Shown here one piece after another: positions 1-19,107 of a stretch of 64,000 bases of DNA; positions within the stretch are counted from its first letter, which is position 1; the number at the start of each line of letters is the position of its first letter. Position numbers and translations under genes: made by a program. The notes beneath the pieces are model-generated. The model saw only the letters and a program-made list of their open reading frames with translations. It had not been told where the DNA came from and ran no database searches. Origin of the DNA: Kineosporia babensis (GTDB taxonomy: Bacteria; Actinomycetota; Actinomycetes; Actinomycetales; Kineosporiaceae); the NCBI RefSeq assembly GCF_021129305.1, contig NZ_JAJOMB010000021.1:124001-188000 (forward strand). Reading direction: 5' to 3'.

Positions 1-1018
1 GTTCGGCCACGCCGTGCGCGACCCGCCCGGTGCGTTCGGGCCGGGCGTGATCAACGAACAGCAGCGCGGGCAGAGCGTTCTCGGCCACGGCCCGGGCCAC
101 CCGGGTGCGCAGGACGTACAGCGCATCGTCCGGCTCACCGGGGCGTGGGCGGACGGCAGCCGCCACCACGCCGGCCCCGATCAGCCCTTCCATCTGCTCG
201 GCGCTGCGCAGCCGGCGGTCGGTGACCTCGCGGGCGAAAGCGCCCACCGCACCGAGCAGCAGGGCCACCAGCAGGCCGCCCATCATCACCAGCCGGCGCT
301 GCGGGGACACCAGCGCCTCGCCGGGATCGGGGGCGCTGACCACCTGCCCCGGGTCGATGCTCATCCCCTTGAGCGAGTTCTGCTTCACCGCCAGATCATT
401 GATCTGCTGGATCAGCAGGGTCTTGGCGCTGCTGTCGTCCTGTGCCTGGGCCGTGGTCGGATCCGCCCCGGCCAGCGACTTGTTCACCTCACCGAGGCGA
501 TCCTGCAGGTCTTCGATGTTGCTCTGGTTGGCCTCGACCAGCCCGTCGCGCCGCTCGGTGGCCCACTTCCCCCGGCTGCTCAGGTAGGCAGCTGCGAAAG
601 CATTGGCCCCGGCTGCGGATTCGGCCGCGGTACCGGCCTGGAACTGGATCGACAGCGTGGTGGTGCCCGAGGCCGGGCGGATGGTGACGTGCTGCAGCAT
701 CCAGCCCGGGTCCGGCTTACCCGACAGCGACTCGGCCGCAGCCGCCGCAACCACCTTGGACGAGGCGGTTTTCGCCTCGGTGTCCACGTCGATCAGCTGG
801 CTGCCGGCCTTGGTCTCGTCGAACGGCGAGATGGTGATCGCCCGCAGTTCGACCAGAGCCACCGAGGTGTAGGTGCGCGGGCCGAGCGCGAGGTAGGCCG
901 CGGCCAGGCCGAGCACCACCGCCCCGACCAGCAGCACGGCACGCCACCGGCGCCGCGGCACCGACAGGTACCGGGCCAGCTCGGTGCTCTGCGGGCCGTA
1001 GGGCGCTGCCACAGACAT
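1..1018 (-). CDS. Wzz/BY-kinase-like polysaccharide chain-length protein (partial, C-terminus off window)
   Basis: 339 codons are visible and the gene runs off the left edge. The ATG at 1018 follows an AAGGAAG ribosome-binding site at about 1027-1033. An N-terminal membrane segment (about residues 24-44) is followed by an extracytoplasmic region with a helical middle and a second membrane segment (about 236-262). This is the topology of Wzz chain-length regulators and of the N-terminal half of actinobacterial capsular tyrosine kinases. The last visible residues enter what would be the kinase domain (LYVLRTRVARAV, then LLFVDHARPERTGRVAHGVA). Where a BY-kinase has a GEGKT/S P-loop, this one reads RPERTGR, so the Walker A looks degenerate. 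It is divergent from the polysaccharide operon that starts at 1315 and probably controls chain length or export of that polymer. The family is likely; kinase activity is doubtful and the end is unseen. Confidence 0.75.
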   Translation of the reverse strand, partial: MSVAAPYGPQSTELARYLSVPRRRWRAVLLVGAVVLGLAAAYLALGPRTYTSVALVELRAITISPFDETKAGSQLIDVDTEAKTASSKVVAAAAAESLSGKPDPGWMLQHVTIRPASGTTTLSIQFQAGTAAESAAGANAFAAAYLSSRGKWATERRDGLVEANQSNIEDLQDRLGEVNKSLAGADPTTAQAQDDSSAKTLLIQQINDLAVKQNSLKGMSIDPGQVVSAPDPGEALVSPQRRLVMMGGLLVALLLGAVGAFAREVTDRRLRSAEQMEGLIGAGVVAAAVRPRPGEPDDALYVLRTRVARAVAENALPALLFVDHARPERTGRVAHGVAE

Positions 1019-1314
1019 GCATCACGCTTCCTTAAGAGAAGTCCCCCATGACGCCCTGATCGCCGTCAGCATAACCCGGCGTTCACTCAAGTAAAGGTCT
1101 TTTGTTACGCAACGGGCAATGTTCTTAGGTGTTACAAAAGAGGCGGAATTTGGTAGCGGAATCGTCGTACAGTTGCCGCCCATCACCCTAAACTGGGCGC
1201 CGTCCGGAACCGGCCGGACACTGGCCGTGATCGATCCGGCTCGGTACTGCACGTCAAGCGCGACCTAACCAGGCATCAAGTCCAATCCGGTGAAACGGCG
1301 ACTCGGGGGCTGCG
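1019..1314. promoter_or_regulatory. Divergent intergenic region between the Wzz-like gene and the EPS operon
   Basis: 296 bp without a supported gene. It separates two divergently transcribed polysaccharide genes, so it should hold both promoters. The stretch around 1075-1160 is AT-richer than its surroundings, with runs such as CTTTTGTTAC near 1098 and GTTACAAAAG near 1131, and is the likeliest promoter area. I could not fix -35/-10 boxes. Confidence 0.45.
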
Positions 1315-2433
1315 ATGAGCGAGCACCACCCTGCACCGGCGGCGACCCCGGGGGCAGCCTCGACGGAGGCTCCGGCGATGGAGGCTCCGGCGACGGACGC
1401 CCCGGCAGCGGCCTCGGTCACTGCGGTGGTGGCCACCCGCAACCGGCCGGAGCAGTTGCGCCGGGCACTCACCGCGATCCTCGAGCAGGACCATCCCGGT
1501 CCGCTGGAGTGTCTGGTGGTGTTCGACCAGAGCGAGCCGCACGACCTGGGCCTGCCCGACCACCTGGCCGAGCACTTGACCGAGCACCTGACCGAGCGCC
1601 CGGCCGAGCAGCTCACCGAAAACGAGCAACCGGCCGAACCTCAGAGCGACACCAGCCCCACCACCGGCCCACCCCGCCGCACGGTCCGGATCCTGCGCAA
1701 CACCCGCACCCCCGGCCTCCCGGGCGCCCGAAACACCGGAATCACCCAGGCCACCGGAGAATTCGTGGCCTTCTGCGATGACGACGACGAGTGGCTGCCG
1801 GGCAAACTACGGGCCCAGTTCGAGCAGTTGCGTCACCACCCCGAAGCCTCAGCCGTGGCCAGCGGCATCCTGGTGCACTTCCGGGGCCAGGACCGGCCTC
1901 GCCTGCCCACCGCCGAATCCCTCTCGCACGCCGACTTCCTGCGCGACCGGCAGATGGCTGTCCACCCGAGCACCCTGGTGTTCCGCCGGGCCGACCTGCT
2001 GGACGAGACCGCCGGCATCGGCCTGGTCGACGAGGAGATCCCCGGCGGCTACGGCGAGGACTACGACCTGTTGCTGCGGGCCGCCCGCCGGGCCCCGGTG
2101 ATCGCCGTCAGCCGGCCCCAGGTGCGGGTCTACTGGCACGAGTCGTCCTACTTCTTCGACCGCTGGCAGACCATCGTCAACGCCCTGGGCTACCTGCTGC
2201 GCAAGCATCCGGAGTTCGCCGGCGACCGGGCCGGCCTGGCCCGGCTGCACGGGCAGATCGCCTTCGCCTACGCCGGGATGGGTCAGCGCCGCCCGGCCCG
2301 GGCACACGCCGTCCGGGCCCTGCGCGGCAACTGGCGGGAGAAGCGCTCGGTACTGGCCCTGCTGGTCAGCACCGGCCTGGTGCGCGCCCAGTTCCTCAGC
2401 AACCTCAGCCACCGCTTCGGCCGAGGCATCTGA
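1315..2433 (+). CDS. GT2-family glycosyltransferase
   Basis: 372 aa, first gene of an eight-gene plus-strand operon. After about 34 Ala/Pro-rich residues the GT-A fold starts at SVTAVVATRNRPEQLRRAL. The nucleotide-sugar/metal site is the acidic cluster CDDDDEWLPGKL (about residues 153-164), and a later GGYGEDYDLLLR stretch matches the acceptor-side ED motif of GT2 enzymes. There is no membrane segment, so the enzyme is cytosolic. It should add a sugar to a lipid-linked repeat unit. Between the first beta strands and the ARNTGI motif lies an unusual hydrophilic insert (residues 83-115) that contains five tandem copies of a four-residue unit (HLTE-type). The stop TGA shares one base with the ATG of the next gene, so translation is coupled. 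Family assignment is firm; donor and acceptor are unknown. Confidence 0.88.
   Translation: MSEHHPAPAATPGAASTEAPAMEAPATDAPAAASVTAVVATRNRPEQLRRALTAILEQDHPGPLECLVVFDQSEPHDLGLPDHLAEHLTEHLTERPAEQLTENEQPAEPQSDTSPTTGPPRRTVRILRNTRTPGLPGARNTGITQATGEFVAFCDDDDEWLPGKLRAQFEQLRHHPEASAVASGILVHFRGQDRPRLPTAESLSHADFLRDRQMAVHPSTLVFRRADLLDETAGIGLVDEEIPGGYGEDYDLLLRAARRAPVIAVSRPQVRVYWHESSYFFDRWQTIVNALGYLLRKHPEFAGDRAGLARLHGQIAFAYAGMGQRRPARAHAVRALRGNWREKRSVLALLVSTGLVRAQFLSNLSHRFGRGI
1561..1620 (+). repeat. 12-bp in-frame tandem repeat inside the GT2 gene
   Basis: Five contiguous 12-bp units of the type CACCTGACCGAG (period exactly 12). They encode HLAE, HLTE, HLTE, RPAE and QLTE at residues 83-102. The units are degenerate at several positions but remain in frame, consistent with slippage expansion of a surface loop. 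Confidence 0.8.
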
Positions 2434-3767
2434 TGCCCGCCCAGCCACCTACGTCCTCAATTCCCGATCCACCGACCCGGCCACCGGCGTCCTCCAGCAC
2501 CGATCTACCCGCCTGGCCGCTGGCCGCGGCGTTCGGCGGTTACCTGGCCTGGTGGCTGCTGGGGCTCGGGGACGGCGTGTGGATCCTGTTCGCCGTCCCG
2601 ATGCTGGTGCTGCTGATCGCCCGGGGTTCGGTCCGGGTGCCACCCGGGTTCGGTATCTGGCTGCTCTTCCTCGGCTGGGTGCTCGCCTCGGCAGTGCAGA
2701 TCGACTCCGGCGGGCGGATGTTCGGCTTCGCCTTCCGCTTCTCGCTCTACCTGGCCGCCACCATCACCTTCGTCTACGTGTACAACGCCTCCTCCGGCCT
2801 CGGGGTGGAGCGGGTGGCCGCCGTGATGACCTCGTTCTGGCTGCTGGTGGTGTTCGGCGGGTTCCTCGGCCTGCTGGTGCCCGACGGCGGGTTCGCCAGC
2901 CCGATGTCCTACCTGCTGCCCGGCGGCCTGCAGCAGAACGAGCTGGTGCGCGAGATGGTCCGCCCGACCTTCACCCAGGGCGACCCGAACGGCTACTTCC
3001 AGATGGCCACCCGGCCCAGCGCCCCGTTCAAGTACACCAACGGCTGGGGCTCGAACTACTCGCTGCTGCTGCCCTTCGTGTTCATCACGCTGAGCCGGAT
3101 GCGAAAGAACCTGCTGTTCTGGGGGCTGGCCGCGATGGTGCCGCTCTCACTGATCCCGGCCTTCTCCACGCAGAACCGGGGCATGCTGCTGGGCGCGGGC
3201 ATCGGCATCGTCTACATCGCGGTGCGGCAGCTGCTGCGCGGGCAGGCCCTGGCACTGATCGGGATCGGGGTGTTCGCCGCCACGGTGATGGCGATGACCG
3301 TGGTGATCCCGGTCGGCGCGATGATCGAGAGCCGCACCGAGACCGGCGACACCAACGACACCCGGTTGTCGCTGTACTCCGAGGCATTCGAGCGCACGCT
3401 CGATTCGCCGGTGCTGGGCTACGGCGCTCCGCGGCCCTCGATCGGGCCGGAGGGGAACCCATCGGTCGGTACCCAGGGCCAGTTCTGGCAGGTGATGTTC
3501 GCCCACGGGTTCGGCGGGCTGGTGTTGTTCGTGGGCTGGTTCCTGTTCCTGGTGGTGCGTACCGCCCGGCCTCCCGACAACACCCATCTGTGGCTGCACG
3601 CGGTGCTGGTGATGGTGTCGGTCGAGCTCATGTACTACGGCCTGATGGGCTCGGTGCTGGTGATCGTGATGACGGCGGCGGCGGTCTGCCTGCGCGACAC
3701 CGACAACGCCGAACGCCGCCAGGCCCGGCCGCGCGCAGTTCTCGGCCCACGGGCAGTCGCCTCGTGA
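2433..3767 (+). CDS. O-antigen ligase/polymerase (Wzy-like) membrane protein
   Basis: 444 aa with about ten to twelve hydrophobic segments, for example LAAAFGGYLAWWLLGL and FAVPMLVLLIARG. A large extracytoplasmic loop in the middle (about residues 150-200: ELVREMVRPTFTQGDPNGYF, then PFKYTNGWGSNYS) and the PAFSTQNRG segment are typical of the O-antigen ligase/WaaL-Wzy superfamily. The role would be polymerising or ligating lipid-linked repeat units on the outer face of the membrane. The ATG overlaps the GT2 stop in TGATG. The gene end overlaps the GTG of the flippase gene by 4 nt. Polymerase versus ligase cannot be decided from sequence; with Wzx- and Wzz-like neighbours, Wzy is more likely. 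Confidence 0.8.
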   Translation: MPAQPPTSSIPDPPTRPPASSSTDLPAWPLAAAFGGYLAWWLLGLGDGVWILFAVPMLVLLIARGSVRVPPGFGIWLLFLGWVLASAVQIDSGGRMFGFAFRFSLYLAATITFVYVYNASSGLGVERVAAVMTSFWLLVVFGGFLGLLVPDGGFASPMSYLLPGGLQQNELVREMVRPTFTQGDPNGYFQMATRPSAPFKYTNGWGSNYSLLLPFVFITLSRMRKNLLFWGLAAMVPLSLIPAFSTQNRGMLLGAGIGIVYIAVRQLLRGQALALIGIGVFAATVMAMTVVIPVGAMIESRTETGDTNDTRLSLYSEAFERTLDSPVLGYGAPRPSIGPEGNPSVGTQGQFWQVMFAHGFGGLVLFVGWFLFLVVRTARPPDNTHLWLHAVLVMVSVELMYYGLMGSVLVIVMTAAAVCLRDTDNAERRQARPRAVLGPRAVAS

Positions 3768-5281
3768 CCACGACCACCAGAGCGCATCGCGACCTAGCGG
3801 CGGTGGCCAAGGGCGGCTCGATCGCCGCCGCCGGGGCGGTGATCTCGGCGGTCGGCGGGCTGCTGCTGACCATCGTGGTCGCCCGCGGGCTGGGGGCGGC
3901 CGGGGCAGGCCTGTTCTTCGAGGCGGTCGCGGTCTTCATGATCGCGCAGAGCCTTTCCACCCTGGGCGCGGACACCGGCCTGATGCGGGCTCTTTCCCGG
4001 GCTCGGGCGCTGGGCCAGGCCGGTGAGACGCGCCGGCTGATCGCCGTGGCCATGATTCCGGTGGCCCTGGGCTCGCTGCTGCTGGCCGGGCTGCTGTGGT
4101 GGCTCACGCCCTGGCTGCTCGATCTTCTGGCCAACGGCAGTTCCGATCATGGCCGGGCCGAGCAGTACGTGCACCTGATGGCCCCCTTCCTCGTGGTGGC
4201 CACCACCGCCACCGTGGCCGCGCAGGCCACCCGGGCGTTCGGCAGCGTGGTCGGGTTCGTCGCGGTACAGAACGTGCTCATCCCGCTCGGCCGGCCGCTC
4301 GGCATCGGCATTGCCGTCCTGGCCGGCTGGACCGGACTGGTCGTGCCGCTGATCTGGACCCTGCTGTTCATCCCGGCCCTGCTGGTAGCCGGCTGGACGC
4401 TGCGCCGCCAGGTCCGGCGCACGGATTCCGACGAGGTTCACCCGCCGCGGCCGTTGCCGCAAATTGCCCGGGAGTTCTGGGCATTCAGCGCGGTCCGGGG
4501 TATCTCCGCGGCGATCGACGTTTTCCTGGTCTGGTGCGGGGTGCTTCTGGTGGCCGCGTTCCTGACCCCGGCCGAGGCCGGGGTGTACGCCACCGCCAGC
4601 CGATTCATCACCTCCGGCACACTGGTCCTGCAGGCCATGCGGTTGGCCATCGCTCCCCAGATCAGCGCCCTGATGAGCACCGGGCAGACCGAGCGCGCCG
4701 GGCGGATCTACCGGGTGGCCACGCTCTGGATCGTCGCCTCCTCGTGGCCGCTGTACCTGGCCCTGGCCTGCTTCTCCGGTCTGCTGCTGGACCTGTTCGG
4801 CCCCGGCTTCGGGGTCGGCGCCACCGCGATGAGCATCCTGGCCCTGGCCATGCTGGTCAATCTCGGCACCGGCAATGTCGGCACGGTGCTGCTGATGGCC
4901 GGGCGCTCACACTGGCTGCTACTGAACAAGTCGCTGGCGGTGGTCACCATGGTCGGCCTGAACCTCTGGCTGGTACCCCGTTACGGCCTCGAAGGCGCCG
5001 CGATCGCCTGGGGCGCAGCCATGGCGCTGGACAACCTGATCGCCGTGGTACAGGTGCGCTGGGGGCTGGGACTGCGCGGCTACAACGCCACCACGGCCTG
5101 GACCTGCGCTCTGGCCGTCATCATCTACGGCGGTGGCGGACTGCTCGCCAAAGCCACGATCGGCGAGGGTTATCTGGCGCTGACGGCGTACCTGCTGGCC
5201 GGCACCGCCGCCTACGCCGCAGTGCTCTGGCATTTCCGGGCCCGGATGGAGCTCGGCGAGATCACCAGGAAGGTGGGCTGA
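3764..5281 (+). CDS. Polysaccharide flippase (Wzx/MATE-like)
   Basis: 505 aa with about 12-14 membrane segments. The N-terminus (AAVAKGGSIAAAGAVISAVG, then GLLLTIVVARGLGAAGAGLF) is the characteristic start of the polysaccharide-synthesis branch of the MOP flippase family. The repeated FVARGLG/GxGF-type turns and the C-terminal LVPRYGLEGAAIAWG segment also fit. It would flip undecaprenyl-linked repeat units from cytosol to cell surface for the polymerase encoded just upstream. The start is GTG in a GTGA overlap with the upstream stop. It is 1 nt from the next gene. Confidence 0.86.
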   Translation: MTTTTRAHRDLAAVAKGGSIAAAGAVISAVGGLLLTIVVARGLGAAGAGLFFEAVAVFMIAQSLSTLGADTGLMRALSRARALGQAGETRRLIAVAMIPVALGSLLLAGLLWWLTPWLLDLLANGSSDHGRAEQYVHLMAPFLVVATTATVAAQATRAFGSVVGFVAVQNVLIPLGRPLGIGIAVLAGWTGLVVPLIWTLLFIPALLVAGWTLRRQVRRTDSDEVHPPRPLPQIAREFWAFSAVRGISAAIDVFLVWCGVLLVAAFLTPAEAGVYATASRFITSGTLVLQAMRLAIAPQISALMSTGQTERAGRIYRVATLWIVASSWPLYLALACFSGLLLDLFGPGFGVGATAMSILALAMLVNLGTGNVGTVLLMAGRSHWLLLNKSLAVVTMVGLNLWLVPRYGLEGAAIAWGAAMALDNLIAVVQVRWGLGLRGYNATTAWTCALAVIIYGGGGLLAKATIGEGYLALTAYLLAGTAAYAAVLWHFRARMELGEITRKVG

Positions 5282-5282: not shown

Positions 5283-6161
5283 ATGATCAAGCGGGTTCTG
5301 CCGGACTCCGGGAAGAACGTGGTGCGCAACGGTTTGCGGGGCTGGGGCCGGGCCACCGCCGGGCTCCGGCCGCTGCCCGACTTCCTGGTCATCGGCACCA
5401 AACGCGGCGGCACCACCTCGCTCTGGAACTACCTGCTGAGCCATCCGGGCGTGCTGCCGATGTTCCCCTCCCCGCTGAACATCAAGAGCCCGCACTACTT
5501 CTACTGGCACTACGCCAACGGCCCGCTCTGGTACCGCTCACACTTCGCCAGTACCCCGACCCGCACTGTGCTCAGCCGGCTCCGAGGCGCCCCGACCCGC
5601 ACCGGCGAAGCCTCCCCCAACTACCTGTACGACCCGCGGGTACCGGCCCGGGCCGCCGAACTGCTGCCCACCGCCAAGGTGATCATGCTGCTCCGGGATC
5701 CGGCCGAAAGAGCCTATTCGCACTACAAGGAGCGGGTCCGGGCCGGGGTCGAGGACCTGTCCTTCGAGGATGCGCTGGCCGCCGAGCCCGGGCGGCTGGC
5801 CGGTGAGGCCGAGAAGATGCAGGCCGACCCCTACTACTACAGCCGGCCGTACGACTACTACGCCTACCAGGACCGTGGTGTCTACGCCCCGCAGATCGAG
5901 CGCTGGCAGCAGCAGGTTCCGGCCGAGCGCCTGCTGATCCTGCGCAGCGAGGACTTCTACGACGAGCCGGCCACCGTGTTCAACCAGGTCACGCGGTTCC
6001 TCGAACTGCCCGACCGGCCGCTGCAGAACGCCCGACGCTACAACTACCACGCCGCCTCCGGCATGGAACCGGCCACCCGCAGCGCCCTGCACGAGTTCTT
6101 CGCCGAGCCGGTGGCCGATGTGGAGAAACTCCTGGGTCGCGAAATGGGCTGGCTCCAGTGA
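5283..6161 (+). CDS. PAPS-dependent sulfotransferase
   Basis: 292 aa. The 5'-phosphosulfate loop is VIGTKRGGTTSLWNYLLSHP (from about residue 36), with the usual KxGTT-type core as KRGGTT. The 3'-phosphate-binding motif is LLRDPAERAYSHYKER (residues 137-152). Both sites needed for PAPS are intact. The layout is that of heparan-sulfate-type (Sulfotransfer_1) carbohydrate sulfotransferases. No signal or membrane segment is evident, so it probably sulfates a lipid-linked or nucleotide-activated sugar before flipping. It lies 1 nt after the flippase gene, and its stop overlaps the next GTG. The cysDNQ genes at 14599-17540 can supply part of its donor pathway. Confidence 0.87.
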   Translation: MIKRVLPDSGKNVVRNGLRGWGRATAGLRPLPDFLVIGTKRGGTTSLWNYLLSHPGVLPMFPSPLNIKSPHYFYWHYANGPLWYRSHFASTPTRTVLSRLRGAPTRTGEASPNYLYDPRVPARAAELLPTAKVIMLLRDPAERAYSHYKERVRAGVEDLSFEDALAAEPGRLAGEAEKMQADPYYYSRPYDYYAYQDRGVYAPQIERWQQQVPAERLLILRSEDFYDEPATVFNQVTRFLELPDRPLQNARRYNYHAASGMEPATRSALHEFFAEPVADVEKLLGREMGWLQ

Positions 6162-7135
6162 GATATCGCCTGACCGCCCTGATCCTGACCATGAGCCTGC
6201 TCAGCGCCTGCTCGGACTCGGGCTCGAACCCGGACGGCCCGCAGCCTTCCGCCGCCGTGCCCACGGTCTCGCCCGAGGGCCCGCACCGGCCGGCTATCGG
6301 GGCCTGGGCCCAGCCGACCGGTGGCCACAACCGGGACCGGCAGATGGCCGCGGTCACCCAGCTGGAGGCCGATCTGGGGCACAAGCTGGCGATCGACCAC
6401 TTCTACGTCACCGACTTCGCCGAGGTGCGCACCTGGGACTGGCGGCTGCAGTGGGACCTGGAAGAGGGCCGGATCCCGATGATCTCGATGGGCTCGGGCG
6501 CCGACACCCAGCTGGTCGCCTCCGGGATGTTCGACCCGCAGCTGGAGTCGTACGCCGAGGCGATCGCCGACAGCGGGGCCGAGCGGGTGCTGATCCGCTA
6601 CGCGTTCGAGATGGACGGCGCGCTGAACCGCGACTGGGTGCGCTCCGGGCCCGACTTCATTCGGGCCTGGCAGCACGTGCGCTCGAAGTTCGAGGGTCTG
6701 CCGGTGGAGTGGGTCTGGTCGCCGAACGCCCCGGCCTTCGACGGCACGAACGGAGGCGTGGACCAGTACTGGCCCGGCGACGACCAGGTCGACTGGATCG
6801 CGGCCGACGGCTACAACTTCTACACCTGCGCCGACCACCGCTACTGGAAGAGCTTCGACGAGATCTTCACCCCCTTCCTGGAGTGGGCCGAGTCCAAGGA
6901 GAAGCCCTTGATGCTGGCCGAGTTCGGCAGTCTGCGCGATCCCGAGCAGCCCGCCCGGCAGGCCGAGTGGATCGCCGACTCGGTGAGCCGGGCCTCCACC
7001 CATCCGCAGCTCAAGGCCCTGGTCTATTTCAACTCCGACGGCCAGGGCTGTGACTGGCGGCTGGACTCGTCCGACCACACCAACGCCATGCTGCCGGACC
7101 TCGGGCTGGCCGACCAGGTTGCGGAGCTGGAGTGA
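6158..7135 (+). CDS. GH26-like glycoside hydrolase lipoprotein
   Basis: 325 aa, GTG start in a GTGA overlap. A short signal peptide ends in the lipobox LSAC (Cys18), followed by a Ser/Asn/Gly linker, so the protein should be membrane-anchored outside the cell. The rest matches the GH26 (beta-mannanase-type) barrel. The acid/base candidate is E151 in RYAFEMDG. The nucleophile candidate is E255 in LMLAEFGS. VEWVWSPNAP and DWIAADGYNFY are further family landmarks. It is homologous to the larger secreted enzyme at 9789-11450. In an assembly operon it may trim, release or remodel the polymer rather than feed the cell. Fold is likely; substrate is unknown. Confidence 0.82.
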   Translation: MRYRLTALILTMSLLSACSDSGSNPDGPQPSAAVPTVSPEGPHRPAIGAWAQPTGGHNRDRQMAAVTQLEADLGHKLAIDHFYVTDFAEVRTWDWRLQWDLEEGRIPMISMGSGADTQLVASGMFDPQLESYAEAIADSGAERVLIRYAFEMDGALNRDWVRSGPDFIRAWQHVRSKFEGLPVEWVWSPNAPAFDGTNGGVDQYWPGDDQVDWIAADGYNFYTCADHRYWKSFDEIFTPFLEWAESKEKPLMLAEFGSLRDPEQPARQAEWIADSVSRASTHPQLKALVYFNSDGQGCDWRLDSSDHTNAMLPDLGLADQVAELE

Positions 7136-8337: not shown

Positions 8338-9251
8338 GGGTGGCCTTCGTGGGCGGGGTCGGGCGCAGCGGCTCCACCCTGATCGAACTGGCGCTGGGCC
8401 AGTTGCCGGACGCCTGCCCGCTGGGCGAGGTACGCCACCTGTGGCAGCGCGGGGTGGCCGAGAACCAGCTCTGCGGCTGTGGTGAGCCGTTTGCAGCCTG
8501 CTCGTTCTGGAAGAGTGTGGGTGAGCAGGCGTTCGGCGGCTGGGACCAGGTGGACCTGGCCGAGGTGCAACAGCTCAAGTCCGCAGTCGACCGGTCCCGG
8601 CACGTGCCTCGCCTGTTGCTGCGGCCCAGTTCGGCGGTGGCCCGGTACACCGAGCTCTACCGGCGCATCTATACCGCGGCCGGCGAGGTGAGCGGCCGGG
8701 CCCTGGTGATCGACTCCAGCAAACACATCTCGTTCGCAGCCTGCCTGGCCGTGGATCCGGAGGTGGACCTGCGGGTGCTGCACGTGGTGCGCGATCCCCG
8801 GGGCGTGGCCCACTCCTGGAGCAAACAGACGGTGCGGCCCGAGGTCACCAGCGGCGACGTCTACATGCCGCAGTACTCGGCCGGGCATGCAGCGTTGCAG
8901 TGGGATGCCCACAACGCCATGTATGCGGCACTGCGGCTGCGGCTGGGCGCGGCGCAACGGCTGCTGCGGTACGAGGACTTCGTTGCCGATCCACGCCGCT
9001 CGCTGGTCTCGGTGGCGCAGTTCCTTGAGGTTGAGCCGCTGGCCCAGTGGCAGGAACACCCCGAGAGCCGAGTGCTCGAGCTCGGGGTGCAGCACACGGT
9101 GGCCGGTAACCCGATGCGGTTCACCCAGGGGCCGGTCGAGGTCCGGGCCGACCAGAGCTGGCGGACCGGAATGCCCCGGGCGGCCCGGATCACGGTCACC
9201 GGCAGCACATTTCCGCTGGCCTGGTACTACGGATACGGAGTGACGGGATGA
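8334..9251 (+). CDS. PAPS-dependent sulfotransferase
   Basis: 305 aa. ATG start in an ATGA overlap with the kinase stop; no earlier start has support. The PAPS loop lies at the very N-terminus (VAFVGGVGRSGSTLIELALG), and the 3'-phosphate motif is LHVVRDPRGVAHSWSKQ. A Cys-rich segment (LCGCGEPFAACSFW, about residues 44-57) follows the first motif and is common in actinobacterial sulfotransferases of this subgroup. It belongs to a different subgroup from the enzyme at 5283, so the two probably sulfate different positions or sugars. The stop overlaps the acyltransferase start by 4 nt. Confidence 0.87.
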   Translation: MRVAFVGGVGRSGSTLIELALGQLPDACPLGEVRHLWQRGVAENQLCGCGEPFAACSFWKSVGEQAFGGWDQVDLAEVQQLKSAVDRSRHVPRLLLRPSSAVARYTELYRRIYTAAGEVSGRALVIDSSKHISFAACLAVDPEVDLRVLHVVRDPRGVAHSWSKQTVRPEVTSGDVYMPQYSAGHAALQWDAHNAMYAALRLRLGAAQRLLRYEDFVADPRRSLVSVAQFLEVEPLAQWQEHPESRVLELGVQHTVAGNPMRFTQGPVEVRADQSWRTGMPRAARITVTGSTFPLAWYYGYGVTG

Positions 9252-11791: not shown

Positions 11792-13345
11792 TCACCCACC
11801 GACCACGACCGGGACGGAAGCGGGTGACAACGTGGACGAAGCGTTTTCGTCGGCCTGCACCACGTCCACCCGGTAGGTGTGCGTACTGCCCGGGGTAAGC
11901 CCGCTGTCGGTCAGCACGACCACCGGCTGCCGCCAGAACAGCACGTGCTGGACCGGCGAAGTGGCCACCGGAGTGCTGGATCCGTCACGGTAGAGCCGTA
12001 CTCGCAGATCGGTGTTGTCCAGATCGAGTGGCACGGTGACCCGCATCTGCACCGAAGTGCCGCTGGACGAGACCAGGGTGGGCGCCGCCGGCCGAGCCGG
12101 TGGGCTGTCCGGCGTCGGGGCGAACCGGGCCAGCCCCACCTGGGCTCGTTTGTTCACCGACGTGAACTGTCCTCCCACCCACAGATTCGTGCCGTCGGTG
12201 GTCATCGTGCGCGGCCCGAGACCGCCCACCCCCGCGTTGGTGTTGGGGTACCAGGGCCCGAGGAAACCGTTGTCGAGCCGCTGCGCCAGCAGATGCCGGG
12301 AACTGGACTCCGGAACCTGCGGGAAGGCGTCCGGGTCGTTGTAGGCGTTCTGGCGGGCGCAGTCGTGCGCGTGCGAGCCCTTGTAGAGCCAGCCCCGCAC
12401 CACCTCGACCGACTGGGTACCGCCGAGGCAGGTGTTCTTCCAGATCAGGTTCCCGGAGGAAACCGAGGCCGCGAAGGTTCCGTCGAAGCAGCCCCCGCCG
12501 GTACCCTCGGCCCCGAAATAGACCACTCCAGAGGCAATCACCGAATCACGCACCACCGAAGTGCAGCCGTTCGTCACCGGCGGCATGGCCGAACCCGCGG
12601 CGAACGGCAGACCAGCGCCGCTCGTTCCGTCGAGAGCACCCACCGCCCGACGCGCCGCACCGGCCAGCGTACTGAAACCGCCTCCGGCGTAGACTTTGCC
12701 GCCGTCGGCCGAGGATGACAACGTGTACACGACGCCGTCCGCACCCGGGTTCCAGGGCAGCAGCCCGCCGTCCGCGGCGCGCACCGCTGCCAGCCGCTGC
12801 CGTGGAGTGTTGTTCACCCGTCCGAAACTGCCTCCGAACCAGACGGTTCCGGAGGAGGCGGTGATGGCGGTGACGGCTGCCGCGGGCTGTGGAGCGAAAG
12901 CCGTGATGCGGTTGCCGGTGGCTGTGCTGAAGGCCACCAGCCGCCCCGCCGGCTGGCCGTCCACCTGGGTGAAGTCACCGCCGACATACAGCACCGACCC
13001 GTCCGGCGAGGTGGCGAGGACCCGGGGCCGTACGTTGAAGGTGTGGTTGAACGGAAGCAGCGCTCCGCTGGAGGAATCGAAGGCCGCCAGGTAGCGCCGA
13101 GCCGTCTCCTGGGTACCGGCGGCCGCACCCGGAGGACGCACGGAAGTGAACTCTCCGGCGGCGTAGACGGCGCCGTTGGCGTAGGCCAGATCCCACACCG
13201 GGGCGTTGGTCTGCCAGGTGCTGGACACCGTTCCGGAATTGACCCCGTCCTGCGAGGCCTGGGCCGGCGGACCGGCGATCACCACCAGCGCCGCCGCAGT
13301 CACGGCAGTTCCCACTGATGCCAGTGCTTTTCGGATCATGCTCAT
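11792..13345 (-). CDS. Secreted beta-propeller protein with C-terminal Ig/FN3-like domain
   Basis: 517 aa from the ATG at 13345, chosen because GGGGAG lies 5 nt upstream; an ATG two codons later (13339) is equally possible. A signal peptide (AVTAAALVVIAGPPAQA) is followed by at least five copies of a 45-50-residue unit of the form VYxGGxFTxVxG...RLAAFD...G.LLPF (YAAGEFTSV, YVGGDFTQV, WFGGSFGRV, YAGGGFSTL, WVGGQFTSV). These resemble delta-60/Kelch-type blades of a propeller. Residues from about 425 form an FN3-like domain (LRVRLYRDGSSTPVATS to STHTYRVDVVQADE). Four or more cysteines near GCTSVV and GGGCFDG may form disulfides. It is probably extracellular and may bind the exopolysaccharide; no catalytic motif is evident. 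Confidence 0.72.
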   Translation of the reverse strand: MSMIRKALASVGTAVTAAALVVIAGPPAQASQDGVNSGTVSSTWQTNAPVWDLAYANGAVYAAGEFTSVRPPGAAAGTQETARRYLAAFDSSSGALLPFNHTFNVRPRVLATSPDGSVLYVGGDFTQVDGQPAGRLVAFSTATGNRITAFAPQPAAAVTAITASSGTVWFGGSFGRVNNTPRQRLAAVRAADGGLLPWNPGADGVVYTLSSSADGGKVYAGGGFSTLAGAARRAVGALDGTSGAGLPFAAGSAMPPVTNGCTSVVRDSVIASGVVYFGAEGTGGGCFDGTFAASVSSGNLIWKNTCLGGTQSVEVVRGWLYKGSHAHDCARQNAYNDPDAFPQVPESSSRHLLAQRLDNGFLGPWYPNTNAGVGGLGPRTMTTDGTNLWVGGQFTSVNKRAQVGLARFAPTPDSPPARPAAPTLVSSSGTSVQMRVTVPLDLDNTDLRVRLYRDGSSTPVATSPVQHVLFWRQPVVVLTDSGLTPGSTHTYRVDVVQADENASSTLSPASVPVVVGG

Positions 13346-13482
13346 TGCGCCTCCCCGTTGGCCGGGCATATGCCCACGGAGTCAGGGTAGGACGGCCCGA
13401 GCCCGTTCACCGGGCGAATCGCCCGATTGCCGACGAACGGTCAAAGCCGGGCAAAGCTATTGCTGCACAGGGATTCTGGCGA

Positions 13483-14418
13483 CTACCGACTCAGGCGCCC
13501 CAGGACGTCCTCAGTTCCCGATCGCACCTGATCCACCACGGAATCCGGCAGACCCACGGGCTCCCGCAGTTTCGCGGCGCTGTCCATCGGGCGGAACGCC
13601 GTGCGCGAGAGCCCGGACCACTGGAACGCGCCGGAGTTGCCGGTGTCGGCGCCGGTGGCCTGCTGCACCGCGGCCCGGGTGGCCTGGTCGTACGTCAGGC
13701 CGCAGTCCCGGTAGAGGTTCTCGAAGGCCGGCACCGGCTGCGCGGCCAGGTCCTCGTAACGCCGCAGCAGCACCCGGCCGGCGTCGGCCTGCCCCAGCAC
13801 GGCCAGGTACACCGCCCGCCAGACCGCGATGATCTGCTCGACCGGATCGCCGGAGCGGGCGGCCCGGCTCAGGCGTTCCCGCTCGGGCTCGAGGTGATCA
13901 GCCATCAGCGCGGGCTGGTTGAGCAACTCGGCCGGATCGACCACCCAGCCCAGCTTCTGCCAACTGGCCACCAGAGTGACCGGGTCGCGGACCAGAACCA
14001 CGACGGTGGCGTCGAACTCGGAGGCCAGCCAGCCCGCCGAGACGCTGGCGTACGGATCGTCGAGCAGCGCCGTGCGCCCGGTGAGCCGGCCCCGGCCGAA
14101 CTCGGTGCAGTACTTGGCCGCCCGCATCAGATCACCGGCCGAGCGGTTGCGGCGCAGTTCCGGCAGCAGGGAGTAACGCAGGCTCAGGGTGCGCGCGAAG
14201 GCGGCGCGCCAGCGGGCCTGGTCGGAGCCGGGGATGTAGTGGAAGTAGTGCTCGACGTCGGCGTTCAGCACCCCCGGGCTGCGGCCGGGCGGACGCGAGG
14301 GATTCATCGGCTCGTTGACGTAGACGACCTCGCCGGACAACTGGAGCATCTTGCCCACCCAGCTGGTGCCCGAGCGAGGCATCCCGGTGACGACCACGGG
14401 CTTTCGAGCAGTCGCCAC
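13483..14418 (-). CDS. PAPS-dependent sulfotransferase
   Basis: 311 aa, GTG start with GGAGG 7 nt upstream. The PAPS loop is VVVTGMPRSGTSWVGKML at residues 8-25, and the 3'-phosphate motif is VVVLVRDPVTLVASWQKLG. It resembles the Sulfotransfer_3 group of actinobacterial polysaccharide loci. It lies downstream of cysN on the same strand but is separated from it by a 155-bp MITE-like insertion, so it may once have been the last gene of the wbaP-cysQDN operon. It is the third sulfotransferase within 9 kb. Confidence 0.86.
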   Translation of the reverse strand: MATARKPVVVTGMPRSGTSWVGKMLQLSGEVVYVNEPMNPSRPPGRSPGVLNADVEHYFHYIPGSDQARWRAAFARTLSLRYSLLPELRRNRSAGDLMRAAKYCTEFGRGRLTGRTALLDDPYASVSAGWLASEFDATVVVLVRDPVTLVASWQKLGWVVDPAELLNQPALMADHLEPERERLSRAARSGDPVEQIIAVWRAVYLAVLGQADAGRVLLRRYEDLAAQPVPAFENLYRDCGLTYDQATRAAVQQATGADTGNSGAFQWSGLSRTAFRPMDSAAKLREPVGLPDSVVDQVRSGTEDVLGRLSR

Positions 14419-14598: not shown

Positions 14599-15849
14599 CT
14601 AGTCGGCTGCGGTGATCATGCCCGCACCGACCGTGCGGTTGGTGTTCTCGTCGATCAGGATGAAGCCGCCGGTCTCCCGGTTACGCGCGTACTCGTCGCA
14701 CAGCAGCGGCTGCGTGGTGCGCAGCCGGACCCGGCCGATGTCGTTGAGCCGCAGTTCCTCGGCCGACGGGTCGCGGTGCAGGGTGTTCACATCGAGCCGG
14801 TACTCCAGCTCCTTGACCATCACCCGGGCACTGCGCGAGGTGTGCTTGATCCCGAGCTTGCGGCCCGGGCGCAGCGCGTCCTCGGACATCCAGCAGATCA
14901 TCGCGTCGATGTTCTGGGCTGCCTTGGGGGCGTTCTGCGGGCGGCAGATCATGTCCCCCCGGGAGATGTCGATCTCGTCGTTCAGCCGGACCGTGACGGC
15001 CATCGGCGGGAACGCCTCGGCGACCGGGCCGTCGGCGGTCTCCACCGCGGCCACCGTGCTGGTGAAACCCGAGGGCAGCACCATGATCTCGTCGCCGGCC
15101 TTGATCGTGCCGCTGGCCACCGTGCCCGCGTAGCCCCGGTAGTCGGGGTACTGGGCCGACTGCGGGCGGATCACGTACTGCACCGGGAACCGCACGTCGA
15201 TCAGGTTGCGGTCGCTGGAGACGTGCACGTGCTCCAGGTGGTGCAGCAGCGAAGGCCCTTCGTACCAGGGCATGTTCTCCGAACGGGAGACGATGTTGTC
15301 GCCCTTGAGCGCGGAGAGCGGGATCACCGTCAGGTCGGCGACGTTGAGCTTGTCGGCGAACCGGGTGAACTCGTCGTGGATCTGCTCGTAGACCGCCTGC
15401 GAGTAGTCCACCAGGTCCATCTTGTTCACCGCGAGCACCAGGTGCGGGACCCGCAGCAGGGTGGCCAGGAAGGCGTGCCGGCGGCTCTGCTCGACCAGGC
15501 CCTTACGCGCGTCGACCAGGATGATCGCCAGGTCGGCGGTGGAGGCCCCGGTGACCATGTTCCGGGTGTACTGGATGTGCCCCGGGGTGTCGGCGATGAT
15601 GAATTTGCGCCGCGGGGTGGCGAAGTAGCGGTAGGCCACGTCGATCGTGATGCCCTGCTCCCGCTCGGCCCGCAGGCCGTCGGTCAGCAGCGCCAGGTTC
15701 ACGTAGTCGTCGCCCTTGGCCGTGCTCGCCGCCTCGACCGCGCTGAGCTGGTCCTCGAAGATCGACTTCGAGTCGAAGAGCAGGCGGCCGATGAGGGTGC
15801 TCTTGCCGTCGTCCACCGAACCCGCGGTGGCGAAGCGCAACATGTCCAC
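14599..15849 (-). CDS. cysN: Sulfate adenylyltransferase subunit 1 (ATP sulfurylase GTPase subunit)
   Basis: 416 aa. The elongation-factor-like GTPase domain carries G1 GSVDDGKSTLIGRLL, G3 IADTPGHIQYTRNM and G4 NKMDLV; domains II and III follow and end in ILIDENTNRTVGAGMI as in full-length CysN. With CysD it makes adenosine 5'-phosphosulfate from ATP and sulfate, GTP hydrolysis driving the reaction. Unlike mycobacterial CysNC there is no fused APS kinase. It starts 2 nt after cysD. A GTG at 15849 is used here; an ATG two codons on is also possible. The MITE-like element begins just past the stop. Confidence 0.95.
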   Translation of the reverse strand: MDMLRFATAGSVDDGKSTLIGRLLFDSKSIFEDQLSAVEAASTAKGDDYVNLALLTDGLRAEREQGITIDVAYRYFATPRRKFIIADTPGHIQYTRNMVTGASTADLAIILVDARKGLVEQSRRHAFLATLLRVPHLVLAVNKMDLVDYSQAVYEQIHDEFTRFADKLNVADLTVIPLSALKGDNIVSRSENMPWYEGPSLLHHLEHVHVSSDRNLIDVRFPVQYVIRPQSAQYPDYRGYAGTVASGTIKAGDEIMVLPSGFTSTVAAVETADGPVAEAFPPMAVTVRLNDEIDISRGDMICRPQNAPKAAQNIDAMICWMSEDALRPGRKLGIKHTSRSARVMVKELEYRLDVNTLHRDPSAEELRLNDIGRVRLRTTQPLLCDEYARNRETGGFILIDENTNRTVGAGMITAAD

Positions 15850-15851
15850 TG

Positions 15852-16760
15852 TCAGAAATACCCTTCGCGCTTGCGGTCTTCCATCGCGGCCTCGCTGAAC
15901 TTGTCGTCCCCACGAGTGGCCCCGCGCTCGGTGATCCGGGTGGACGCGACCTCGTCGATGATCTTGTCGAGGGTGTCCGCGTCACTGCGTACGGCCGCCG
16001 TCAGGCTGGCGTCGCCGACGGTGCGGTAGCGCACGGTCTCGGTGAACACCGTCTCGTTCGACTTGGGCTGGCAGACCTCGTGCACGCCGTAGAGCATCCC
16101 GCCCCGGTCGAAAACCTCACGCTGGTGCGCGAAGTAGATCGAGGGCAGGGCGATCTTCTCCTGCTTGACGTACTGCCAGATGTCCAGCTCGGTCCAGTTC
16201 GACAGCGGGAAGACCCGGATGTTCTCGCCCATCTGGATCCGGCCGTTGTAGGTGTTCCACAGCTCGGGCCGCTGGTTCTTGGGGTCCCACTGGCCGAACT
16301 CGTCGCGGAACGAGAACACCCGCTCCTTGGCCCGGGCCTTGTCCTCGTCCCGCCGGGCGCCACCGAAAGCGGCGGTGAAGCGGTACTTCTCCAGCGCGTC
16401 GAGCAGCACCGGGGTCTGGATCCGGTTGCGGGTGCCGTCCGGCGGCTCGCTGACCAGGCCGCGGTCGAGCGCCTCGGGGACGCTGGCGACGATCAGCTGG
16501 ACGCCCAGCTCGGCCACCCGGCGATCGCGGAAGTCCAGCACTTCCTGGAAGTTGTGGCCGGTGTCCACGTGCATCACCGGGAACGGGATCCGGGCCGGGG
16601 CGAACGCCTTCTCCGCCAGGCGCAGCATCACGATCGAGTCCTTCCCACCGCTGAACAGCAGGACAGGTCTCTCGAGCTCGGCCACCACCTCCCGGATGAT
16701 GTGGATGGACTCGGCCTCCAGCGTCTGCAGCTGGGAGAGCCGGTACTCCGACGTGCTCAT
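15852..16760 (-). CDS. cysD: Sulfate adenylyltransferase subunit 2
   Basis: 302 aa. The PP-loop of the PAPS-reductase/N-type ATP pyrophosphatase fold is LLFSGGKDSIVMLRLAEKAF near residue 34. Family landmarks PVMHVDTGHNFQEVLDFRD, AAFGGARRDEDKARAKER and NWTELDIWQYVKQE are all present, and the length matches the family. It catalyses adenylyl transfer to sulfate in complex with CysN. It is the third gene of the wbaP-cysQ-cysD-cysN operon, 12 nt after cysQ. Its place beside an initiating glycosyltransferase and three sulfotransferases suggests supply of activated sulfate for glycan sulfation rather than only cysteine synthesis. Confidence 0.95.
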   Translation of the reverse strand: MSTSEYRLSQLQTLEAESIHIIREVVAELERPVLLFSGGKDSIVMLRLAEKAFAPARIPFPVMHVDTGHNFQEVLDFRDRRVAELGVQLIVASVPEALDRGLVSEPPDGTRNRIQTPVLLDALEKYRFTAAFGGARRDEDKARAKERVFSFRDEFGQWDPKNQRPELWNTYNGRIQMGENIRVFPLSNWTELDIWQYVKQEKIALPSIYFAHQREVFDRGGMLYGVHEVCQPKSNETVFTETVRYRTVGDASLTAAVRSDADTLDKIIDEVASTRITERGATRGDDKFSEAAMEDRKREGYF

Positions 16761-17540: not shown

Positions 17541-17577
17541 TGCAAGTTCCCTTCGCAGCAGCCGAAGCGGCATTGTC

Positions 17578-19107
17578 TCAGTAAGCGCCGGCTCCTTTGA
17601 CCACTGCGCGCAGGGTCCGCCAGAGGATCGAGAGGTCCAGGGCGATCGACCAGTTGTCGGTGTAGCGCAGGTCCAGCCGCAGCGACTCCTCCCAGTTCAG
17701 GTCGCTGCGCCCGCTCACCTGCCAGAGCCCGGTCAGGCCGGGCCGGACCTTCAGCCGCCGGGCCGCGTCGGCGCTGTAGCCGGCCACCTCCTCGGGCAGC
17801 GGCGGACGGGGTCCGACCAGCGACATGTCGCCGCGCACGACGTTCAGCAGCTGCGGCAGCTCGTCCAGCGAGAAGCGGCGCAGCACGGCGCCGAACCGGG
17901 TCACCCGAGGATCGCGGCGCAGCTTGAACAGCACCCCGTTGCCGTCGCTGAGGGCCATCAGCGCGGCCCGGCGCCCGTCCGCGTCCACCACCATCGAGCG
18001 GAACTTGAGCATGGTGAACTCGCGGCCACCGGCCCCGACCCGGGTCTGCCGGTAGAGCACCGGGCCCGGGCTGGTCAGCTTGACCCCGATCGCGATCGCC
18101 GCCAGTACAGGCAGGGCCAGCACGGTCAGCAGGGTGCCGACGATCCGGTCGAAGGCCAGCTTGCCGAGCATCCGCCCGCCGTTGCCGGAGGGCCGTTCCA
18201 GGTGCAGCAGAGACAGCCCGGCGATCGGCCGGATCGACAGCCGCGGCCCGGCCACCTCGATGATGCCGGGCGAGACGATCAGCTCGACCCCGCGTTCCTC
18301 CAGCGCCCAGGACAGCCGGCGCAGCGCCTGGCCGGACAGGTCCGGGTGCGAGACCACCGCGACCACGTGCGCCCCGGTGTCCTCCACCGCGTCCAGCACC
18401 CGGCCCGGGTCGCCGACCACCGGCACGTCCTGCACGTGCGAGACCTCGGCCCCGGCCAGCGGCACGCAGGCACCGACCGGCACCAGGCCGTGCTGCGGCT
18501 CGTTGTCCAGTTTCTCGATCACCGAGACCACCACGTCGGCCCGGCCCACCACGAGCACCCGCTGCAGGGCCAGACCGCGCGCCCGCAGCCGGTAGATCCA
18601 GGACCGCAACTGCCGGCGCACCAGCAGGGTGAACAGGACCGTGGCCGGGATCGCCAGGAACACGTAGCCGCGCGCCACCTCGCTGCGCAGGCCGTAGGAG
18701 ACCACCGCGATCGCGCAGAACATCACCAGCCCGCCCTGCAGCACCCGGCGGAACTCCTCGGTGCCGGTGCCCAGGAAACGCCGCTCGTAGCCGCGCTGAC
18801 CGGCGATGATCAGCACCCACAGCACCGGCAGGGTGAGGCTGAGCTGGAGGTAGGCGCCGGCCGGGGCGCCGAAGCGGGCGAACAGCGCCAGCAGACCGGC
18901 CAGCAGCGAGGCCAGGAAGTCCCCGGCCAGGGCGTAGTGCTGGTAGCGGCGCATCAGGGTGTCGGGCTCGACGCTGCCACCCAGACCGACGTGCCGGCCG
19001 GTGGCCGAGACCGGCCGGGAACCGCGGGCGAGCGGCGGGGCTGCCGCGATCGGAACCACCTCGTCCAATTGGCGCAGGCTCCTACCGCGGGGCTCCATGA
19101 CTGCCAT
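17578..19107 (-). CDS. Polyprenyl glycosylphosphotransferase (WbaP-like, initiates EPS)
   Basis: 509 aa from the ATG at 19107, which has GGGGGAGG 5 nt upstream. Four N-terminal membrane segments (from FLASLLAGLLALFARFG) and a CoA-binding-like central region (RVLVVGRADVVVSVIEKL) precede the catalytic PglC/WbaP domain. That domain starts at KLAFDRIVGTLLTVLALPV and contains LTSPGPVLYRQTRVG, MLKFRSM, LPQLLNVVRGDMSLVGPRPP and GLTGLWQVSGRS. It transfers a sugar-1-phosphate to undecaprenyl phosphate, the first step of repeat-unit assembly. It is the promoter-proximal gene of the operon with cysQDN. This is the strongest link between glycan assembly and sulfate activation in the window. Confidence 0.93.
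   Translation of the reverse strand: MAVMEPRGRSLRQLDEVVPIAAAPPLARGSRPVSATGRHVGLGGSVEPDTLMRRYQHYALAGDFLASLLAGLLALFARFGAPAGAYLQLSLTLPVLWVLIIAGQRGYERRFLGTGTEEFRRVLQGGLVMFCAIAVVSYGLRSEVARGYVFLAIPATVLFTLLVRRQLRSWIYRLRARGLALQRVLVVGRADVVVSVIEKLDNEPQHGLVPVGACVPLAGAEVSHVQDVPVVGDPGRVLDAVEDTGAHVVAVVSHPDLSGQALRRLSWALEERGVELIVSPGIIEVAGPRLSIRPIAGLSLLHLERPSGNGGRMLGKLAFDRIVGTLLTVLALPVLAAIAIGVKLTSPGPVLYRQTRVGAGGREFTMLKFRSMVVDADGRRAALMALSDGNGVLFKLRRDPRVTRFGAVLRRFSLDELPQLLNVVRGDMSLVGPRPPLPEEVAGYSADAARRLKVRPGLTGLWQVSGRSDLNWEESLRLDLRYTDNWSIALDLSILWRTLRAVVKGAGAY

What the first reader, a model, noticed from the sequence alone, without database searches (positions are those of the whole stretch)
1..19107. A dedicated sulfated-exopolysaccharide locus in an actinobacterium
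Three PAPS-type sulfotransferases from different subgroups (5283, 8334, 13483) lie among Wzx/Wzy/Wzz-like genes. The initiating phosphoglycosyltransferase gene is in one operon with cysQ, cysD and cysN (gaps of 37, 12 and 2 nt). Seen directly: motifs, order and spacing. Known: CysDN makes APS, sulfotransferases consume PAPS, CysQ clears PAP. Inferred: the locus builds a sulfated cell-surface or secreted polymer, with donor supply co-transcribed with chain initiation.
Basis: partly seen in the sequence, partly recalled or inferred. Interest (0 to 1): 0.75.

Follow-up and report, generated by a model that had tools for sequence, protein, structure and literature searches.

The report
Sulfated matrix-polysaccharide locus, actinobacterial wps-1 type
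This stretch of a Kineosporia-family soil bacterium most likely builds a sulfate-decorated surface polysaccharide, and the genes that activate sulfate sit in the same apparent operon as the gene that starts each sugar chain, an arrangement shared by many distantly related actinobacteria.

Summary
Three mutually divergent sulfotransferases lie among Wzx/Wzy/Wzz, glycosyltransferase and GH26 genes; the phosphoglycosyltransferase (PGT) is followed by cysQ, cysD, cysN at 37, 12 and 2 nt. The locus starts about 2.3 kb left of the window. The gene set matches loci of Actinoplanes species laid out like wps-1, an A. missouriensis cluster needed for sporangium formation and predicted to make sulfated polysaccharide (PMC13390465). 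New here: (1) rplY-pth-PGT-cysQ-cysD-cysN is conserved across actinobacterial genera; 14 of 14 searched named genomes with PGT-cysQ-cysD-cysN have a strong WpsH-type sulfotransferase hit, 9 of 35 others do. (2) CysDN is the only ATP sulfurylase found in the genome, so it probably feeds cysteine synthesis too and is not purely 'dedicated'. (3) The only APS kinase found lies 29 kb beyond the window's left edge, carries an apparently dead sulfurylase domain, and resembles the neighbour gene whose deletion surprised the wps-1 authors. (4) Within the genus the PGT-cysQDN block is constant while the cassette beside it is swapped or absent. Sulfation itself, and co-transcription, remain inferred.

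The parts
1..1018 (-). Wzz-like chain-length regulator, in-window part; the gene runs on to -619
   Evidence: homologues beside Wzy and ST1 in other genomes; no Pfam scan run on it
1315..2433 (+). GT2 glycosyltransferase (WpsA-like)
   Evidence: PF00535, 4.1e-19
2433..3767 (+). Wzy-like polymerase
   Evidence: PF04932, 36.1 bits, cut-off 31.7
3764..5281 (+). Wzx-like flippase; start chosen inside the longer ORF 2552-5281
   Evidence: PF01943, 29.3 bits, cut-off 28.2
5283..6161 (+). Sulfotransferase 1, heparan-sulfate-sulfotransferase type (WpsH-like)
6158..7135 (+). GH26-like lipoprotein (WpsE-like)
   Evidence: no Pfam hit at 0.001; two Glu motifs; homologues beside ST1
7132..8337 (+). kinase-like protein with an HGDxxxxN motif (WpsI-like)
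   Evidence: no Pfam or NCBIfam hit at 0.001; motif; conserved beside ST1
8334..9251 (+). Sulfotransferase 2 (WpsB-like)
9248..9757 (+). hexapeptide acetyltransferase; EpsC/WcaB/CysE models match below their cut-offs
9789..11450 (-). CBM4_9-GH26 hydrolase, probably secreted; best solved relative is a GH26 endoglucanase H
11792..13369 (-). beta-propeller-like protein (DUF5122 at its cut-off)
   Evidence: homologues in congeners' cassettes
13483..14418 (-). Sulfotransferase 3
   Evidence: 50% identical homologue in Nonomuraea dietziae
14599..15849 (-). CysN, GTPase subunit of ATP sulfurylase, no APS-kinase domain
15852..16760 (-). CysD, the only ATP sulfurylase catalytic subunit found in the genome
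16773..17540 (-). CysQ, PAP phosphatase; best solved relative 5djf, a PAP phosphatase (3.3e-67)
17578..19107 (-). polyprenyl-phosphate sugar phosphotransferase (PGT) that starts the chain
   Evidence: TIGR03025 412 bits, cut-off 296

Best explanation
The region is a Wzx/Wzy-type assembly locus for a sulfated surface or spore/sporangium-matrix polysaccharide of the Actinoplanes wps-1 kind. The PGT (17578-19107) loads the first sugar phosphate on undecaprenyl phosphate; GT2 and WecG extend the repeat; ST1-ST3 move sulfate from PAPS onto the lipid-linked repeat in the cytoplasm; the acetyltransferase and the kinase-like protein may add other groups; Wzx flips, Wzy polymerises, Wzz sets length; the GH26 enzymes trim or release polymer outside. 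CysDN makes APS, the unlinked APS kinase makes PAPS, CysQ clears the PAP. CysDN also supplies APS to the unlinked CysH for cysteine. Shown: genes, order, spacing, copy number, conservation, homology to loci laid out like wps-1. Inferred: each enzymatic step, sulfation, co-transcription and the matrix role.
For: Domains. CysQ is closest to a solved PAP phosphatase (3.3e-67); the ST1 profile matches a solved sulfotransferase (3rnl) and then heparan sulfate N- and 3-O-sulfotransferases. Only one CysD, no Sat and one APS kinase found in a genome rated 99.27% complete. rplY-pth-PGT-cysQ-cysD-cysN in 9 of 12 other family genomes, a tenth with a weak PGT match, two cut by contig ends, and in Actinoplanes, Paractinoplanes, Pseudosporangium, Nucisporomicrobium, Catellatospora, Nocardiopsis and Nonomuraea. 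14 of 14 searched named genomes with PGT-cysQ-cysD-cysN have an ST1 hit at E<=1e-80 against 9 of 35 without. 18 of 20 ST1 regions opened hold ST1, Wzx, Wzy and the kinase-like gene; seven of them also hold GT2, ST2, WecG, GH26, Wzz and the APS kinase, the wps-1 layout (PMC13390465). In the order sample, PF13469 over its cut-off occurs in 20 of 27 genomes with cysQ-linked cysDN and 0 of 122 others. The APS kinase's sulfurylase part lacks about 80 residues and the catalytic stretch seen in 3cr8, so it should depend on CysDN.
Against: No chemical or transcript data. G007 and G009 keep the block without a cassette; G005, G006 and G008 have a cassette without a PF13469 hit (PF00685 was not searched there). 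APS kinase occurs in 13 of 13 family genomes, also in G001, which has no PF13469 hit. In seven genomes the wps-1-like cluster lies on another contig than PGT-cysQDN or its link is unclear, and in A. missouriensis the wps-1 neighbour AMIS_7390 was not induced with wps-1. CysQ and the acetyltransferase score below their NCBIfam cut-offs; the kinase-like and small GH26-like proteins have no Pfam hit. Sulfotransferases of this superfamily can also act on lipids or small molecules (recalled). The promoter/terminator scan found nothing on the operon's strand, which says little in a high-GC actinobacterium.
Confidence: 0.78

Rival explanations
1. The PGT-cysQDN linkage is an inherited housekeeping neighbourhood at rplY-pth; cysDN serves cysteine synthesis, and the polymer cassette beside it merely sits in a permissive insertion site. 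Sulfation may happen but is not wired to chain initiation.
For: CysDN is the only ATP sulfurylase found; 25 of 27 cysQ-linked genomes have a further PF01507 match, taken as CysH; the block persists in G007 and G009 with no cassette, TauE ending about 90 nt from cysN; rplY-pth-cysQ without cysDN in the opened stretch occurs in several Nocardioides loci.
Against: 14 of 14 genomes with PGT-cysQ-cysD-cysN have the ST1 type against 9 of 35 without; 20 of 27 against 0 of 122 in the order sample; 15 of 54 sulfotransferase places lie within 20 kb of cysD, in 8 of 20 genomes; PGT is 79-85% identical to the window's where a cassette is present and 59-69% where it is absent, although G007 is the closest by cysD, cysN and cysQ.
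Confidence: 0.3
2. The sulfotransferases act on something other than the polysaccharide (a lipid, a small molecule or a surface protein glycan) and are only neighbours of the polymer genes.
For: Own genome has further sulfotransferases away from any wps-type genes (0 of 4 such regions opened); the superfamily has many substrates (recalled).
Against: ST1 profile matches carbohydrate sulfotransferases; ST1 stands with Wzx, Wzy and the kinase-like gene in 18 of 20 regions opened across several genera; deletion of wpsH gave the same squashed sporangia as deletion of Wzx, Wzy or Wzz genes (PMC13390465 section 16).
Confidence: 0.12
3. A locally acquired, possibly non-working cassette: polymer genes recently brought in by transfer beside cysN.
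For: Cassette genes are 24-65% identical to those of G005/G006/G008 while cysD and cysN are 94-97%; absent in G007 and G009; a DDE_5 transposase lies a few kb beyond the left edge.
Against: All reading frames are open and overlap in start-stop fashion; similar gene sets in many actinobacteria; G+C in line with the rest of the window.
Confidence: 0.08

Closest known systems
wps-1 cluster of Actinoplanes missouriensis, AMIS_7280-7380 with neighbour AMIS_7390 (PMC13390465, 2026; abstract, passages and sections 5, 10, 16, 17 seen)
   Same: GT2, WecG-type GT26, GH26, Wzx, heparan-type sulfotransferase, kinase-like protein, Wzy, Wzz and a second sulfotransferase; homologues of all of these, plus the APS kinase, were found together in seven genomes of Actinoplanes and relatives. 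A. missouriensis itself was not in our data.
   Different: Here PGT and cysQDN are joined to the cluster, the APS kinase is distant, and there are a third sulfotransferase, an acetyltransferase, a second GH26 and propeller-like proteins; WpsD (DUF4262) and WpsF (methyltransferase) were not seen. The paper's wps-1 list has no PGT and its text has no hit for cysD, cysQ, PAPS or ATP sulfurylase.
xss cluster for synechan, Synechocystis sp. PCC 6803 (PMC8205485; passages seen)
   Same: Wzx/Wzy system with sulfotransferases of different subfamilies; sulfated product measured there.
   Different: Cyanobacterial, two sulfotransferases, an outer-membrane exporter coded elsewhere; the search for PAPS and APS kinase found no mention in the text. 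No sequence comparison was made here.
Sulfated capsule cluster of Vibrio sp. KMM 8419 (PMC11641403; passages seen)
   Same: cysC, cysN and cysD copies and sulfotransferases within a polysaccharide cluster; [quoted passage not shown]
   Different: There the cys genes are second copies and export is by an ABC transporter; here CysDN is the only ATP sulfurylase found and export is Wzx/Wzy. No sequence comparison was made.
Assimilatory sir-cysH-cysD-cysN operons of actinobacteria
   Same: CysD and CysN are the same enzyme.
   Different: In 37 of the 42 non-cysQ genomes opened, cysD sits beside cysH; in the cysQ-linked class it does not. G135 holds both kinds (loci L062, L099).

Membership tests
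wps-1-type actinobacterial polysaccharide cluster | Wzx, Wzy, Wzz, GT2 and WecG-type GT together | tested here: met
   homologues
wps-1-type actinobacterial polysaccharide cluster | Two sulfotransferases of different families, one heparan type | tested here: met
   ST1 and ST2, plus ST3
wps-1-type actinobacterial polysaccharide cluster | GH26 enzyme and kinase-like protein in the cluster | tested here: met
   the small GH26-like gene and the kinase-like gene by homology and motif only
wps-1-type actinobacterial polysaccharide cluster | Adjacent Sat/APS-kinase-family gene (AMIS_7390) | tested here: not met
   Homologue is in the genome but about 44 kb from cysN; adjacent in 7 of 20 ST1 regions of other genomes
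wps-1-type actinobacterial polysaccharide cluster | Needed for sporangium formation | not testable with these tools
   Shown only in A. missouriensis
Sulfated exopolysaccharide (synechan-like) | Ester sulfate on the purified polymer | not testable with these tools
   needs chemistry
Assimilatory sulfate-reduction operon | cysDN beside cysH or sir | tested here: not met
   cysH-sir on another contig, C15
APS-using CysH (own genome) | CC...CxxC iron-sulfur motif | tested here: inconclusive
   Motif present; NCBIfam passes cysH/PRK02090 models, named PAPS reductase, and misses the cut-offs of both the APS and the PAPS reductase models TIGR02055 and TIGR02057

The most novel reading that the evidence does not exclude
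Across actinobacteria a sulfated matrix-polymer system has captured the cell's only ATP sulfurylase: sulfate activation is transcribed with the enzyme that starts each polymer chain, PAPS is finished by an APS kinase fused to a dead sulfurylase domain, and cysteine synthesis depends on the polymer operon. PGT-cysQDN is a fixed dock into which different polymer cassettes are exchanged.
Probability: 0.35. Interest if true: 0.72.

Novelty: new variant of a known kind. Interest (0 to 1): 0.52.

Why it matters
Sulfated polysaccharides were called exclusive to cyanobacteria among bacteria in the papers seen (PMC8205485, PMC13390465), although sulfated capsules of marine Gram-negatives are also reported (PMC11641403). 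This work names the likely initiating transferase and the sulfate-activation operon missing from the wps-1 account, offers a reason why deleting AMIS_7390 damaged sporangia (loss of PAPS rather than of cysteine), and gives a simple genomic marker, PGT-cysQ-cysD-cysN, for finding more producers. It also makes testable whether sulfur assimilation and envelope-polymer synthesis share one regulated ATP sulfurylase.

Tried and rejected
The plus-strand ORF 14..1051 and the full 2552..5281 ORF as genes: rejected for the minus-strand Wzz-like gene and for an internal Wzx start overlapping Wzy. A second ATP sulfurylase: searched with PF01507 and PF01747, none found beyond CysD and CysH. That the APS kinase is lost where the cassette is absent: rejected, it is in 13 of 13 family genomes. 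That G007's or other congeners' sulfotransferases mark a relocated cassette: 0 of 9 same-genus regions opened held Wzx, Wzy, GT2 or kinase-like hits; of 15 sulfotransferase places in the five congeners only 5 were opened. Riboswitch: the only Rfam match in the window is a tRNA. Sigma-70 promoters or terminators on the operon's strand: none. Literature: ten searches; within these I saw no paper that links PGT-cysQDN to sulfated polymer in actinobacteria. Simple gene caller missed several membrane-protein genes and was not relied on.
Full report
What is there. The window lies in contig C14 of a 9.4 Mb genome rated 99.27% complete. A genome of the same family has a contig of the same length (29,327) and content as Kineosporia sp. 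R_H_3, so I take the family to be that of Kineosporia; the genus was not named by any tool. Reading from left to right, with negative numbers for the stretch before the window: a DDE_5 transposase, a glutathione-S-transferase-like protein, TauE, a propeller-like protein, WecG/TagA glycosyltransferase -2300..-1410, a lipoprotein-like gene, Wzz-like -619..1018, then plus-strand GT2, Wzy, Wzx, ST1, GH26-like, kinase-like, ST2 and acetyltransferase genes with overlapping or touching ends, then minus-strand CBM4_9-GH26, propeller-like, ST3, cysN, cysD, cysQ and PGT, followed by pth and rplY.

Sulfate activation in this genome. PF01507 finds two places: the window's CysD and a CysH on C15 next to a sulfite reductase-like gene with no cysDN in the 3.5 kb seen. 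PF01747 (Sat) finds none. PF01583 finds a single APS kinase, C14:94451-94909, 29 kb beyond the window's left edge and about 44 kb from cysN. A profile of 20 homologues of that protein aligns over its length with the Sat-APS kinase 3cr8, but about 80 residues of the sulfurylase part are missing and the stretch aligned to 3cr8's QARQPMHRAQ is not kept (that this is the sulfurylase catalytic motif is recalled). It therefore looks like an APS kinase with a dead sulfurylase domain that must be fed by CysDN. CysH has the CC...CGPC pattern, typical of APS-using reductases (recalled), but the NCBIfam models do not settle this. If CysH uses APS, the APS kinase would serve PAPS users only. CysQ matches a solved PAP phosphatase best, though it is below NCBIfam's CysQ cut-off.

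Family comparison. Held are 13 family genomes in 6 genera, 6 of them in the window's genus. CysD matches once in 12 of 13; G003 has two further partial matches. Besides the window's own, PGT-cysQ-cysD-cysN with pth and rplY is present in G005-G009, G001, G003, G010 and G011; G002 has only a weak PGT match; the contigs of G004 and G012 end too early. In G007 and G009 the matched end of TauE is about 90 nt from that of cysN, with no polymer genes between. In G005, G006 and G008 a different cassette of about 17 kb lies there: GT2, Wzy, Wzx, Wzz-like, acetyltransferase and propeller homologues, and, read in G008 only, GH16, Alg14/GT28-like, cytidylyltransferase and CDP-alcohol transferase genes; no PF13469 hit falls on those contigs (PF00685 was not searched there). 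G010, G011 and G012 carry an ST1 homologue (51-52%) beside cysN with Wzx, and G010 and G011 also GT2, kinase-like, Wzy and GH26. Cassette genes in G005/G006/G008 are 24-65% identical to the window's, while cysD and cysN are 94-97%. PGT is 79-85% identical in these three and 59-69% in the two without a cassette, although G007 is closest by cysD (98), cysN (97) and cysQ (93). I read this as PGT changing with the polymer made.

Order comparison. In 149 genomes of the order, 78 have CysD. I opened cysD regions of 10 family genomes (the own one in the window) and of 59 others (60 regions). cysQ lies with cysD and cysN in 27 genomes. Of 42 other opened genomes, 37 have cysH with cysD; five do not (G100, G034, G073, G074, and G079, whose cysQ match is only 32%, counted as not linked). 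Nine were not opened; in all nine a second PF01507 match lies within 1 kb of cysD. PF13469 over its cut-off is found in 20 of 149 genomes, all 20 in the cysQ-linked 27, 0 of 122 elsewhere (Fisher 2.8e-19). Counting matches below the cut-off it is 21 of 27 and 3 of 122. Relatedness inflates the test; shuffling within six families that hold both kinds gave p about 1e-4, on a hand-typed table with only four of the cysD-less genomes. 15 of 54 sulfotransferase places lie within 20 kb of cysD, in 8 of 20 genomes. 23 of the 27 have two PF01507 matches, two have three, two have one.

Wider comparison. A scan with a CysQ alignment returned the best 80 of at least 581 loci. Fourteen show PGT-cysQ-cysD-cysN in that order, all with pth and rplY (one, L108, with a weak PGT match). 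50 of the 80 genomes were handed to a search with the ST1 alignment; 49 were held. At E<=1e-80, a line drawn after seeing the results, 23 match: 14 of 14 with the order and 9 of 35 without; at E<=0.001 it is 14 of 14 and 13 of 35. G152, G186 and G161 match partly by construction, being the sources of alignment rows. None of the 30 genomes left out shows the order. In Nonomuraea dietziae one 20.7 kb stretch holds rplY, pth, PGT, cysQ, cysD, cysN, ST2, GT2, WecG, ST3, Wzx, ST1, kinase-like and Wzy homologues, nearly the whole window set in another lineage. I opened 20 regions around ST1 hits: 18 have ST1, Wzx, Wzy and kinase-like homologues; L232 and L236 do not. Seven (three Actinoplanes, Paractinoplanes, Pseudosporangium, Nucisporomicrobium, Catellatospora) also have GT2, ST2, WecG, GH26, Wzz and the APS kinase. 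In the six of these outside Catellatospora the contig lengths show that PGT-cysQDN is on another contig.

Literature. The layout of those seven is that of wps-1 of A. missouriensis: WpsA GT2, B sulfotransferase, C GT26, D DUF4262, E GH26, F methyltransferase, G Wzx, H heparan-type sulfotransferase, I kinase-like, J Wzy, K Wzz (PMC13390465 section 5). Deleting A, C, G, H, I, J or K gave squashed sporangia; deleting B left normal-looking sporangia but about tenfold fewer released spores; E and F had their own defects; D none (section 16). Deleting the neighbour AMIS_7390, annotated as sulfate adenylyltransferase/APS kinase family, gave an unexpected severe defect, though it was not induced together with wps-1. 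The authors predict but did not show sulfation. I propose that AMIS_7390 is the APS kinase that makes PAPS for WpsB and WpsH; this rests on position and annotation, as that genome was not in our data. Kineosporia is listed among actinomycetes whose sporangia release swimming spores (PMC12691653, passage), which makes a sporangium-matrix role plausible here. The GH26 of the window is nearest to an endoglucanase H rather than to mannanases, a hint of glucan-like linkages, weak.

Verdict. The kind of locus is known since 2026 from Actinoplanes; the PGT-cysQDN block, its conservation, its association with the sulfotransferases and the cassette exchange within a genus are the additions.

Noticed in passing
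window 57712-60123 (+) and 60246-62810 (+): Two neighbouring proteins with five PAS matches each and a chemotaxis-receptor (MCP) signalling domain; may suit swimming spores.
   Followed up: no
window 42745-45570 and 45574-48264 (-): Two long adjacent ORFs; the second has only a sub-cut-off DUF7825 match, the first was not scanned.
   Followed up: no
window 22759-22830 (-): tRNA, beside a GlmU-like gene at 21292-22728.
   Followed up: no
L003:11503-12690 (+): DDE_5 transposase a few kb left of the locus.
   Followed up: no
L003:15306-17651 and window 11792-13369: Two propeller-like proteins flank the cassette and have homologues in the cassettes of G005, G006, G008 and in some Micromonospora and Arthrobacter ST1 regions.
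   Followed up: partly
L004:10349-11614 (-): APS kinase with an apparently dead sulfurylase domain.
   Followed up: yes
L062 and L099 (genome G135): One genome holds both kinds of cysDN, cysQ-linked and cysH-linked.
   Followed up: partly
L137:14825-15815: ST2 homologue of Nocardiopsis eucommiae falls in three reading-frame pieces.
   Followed up: no
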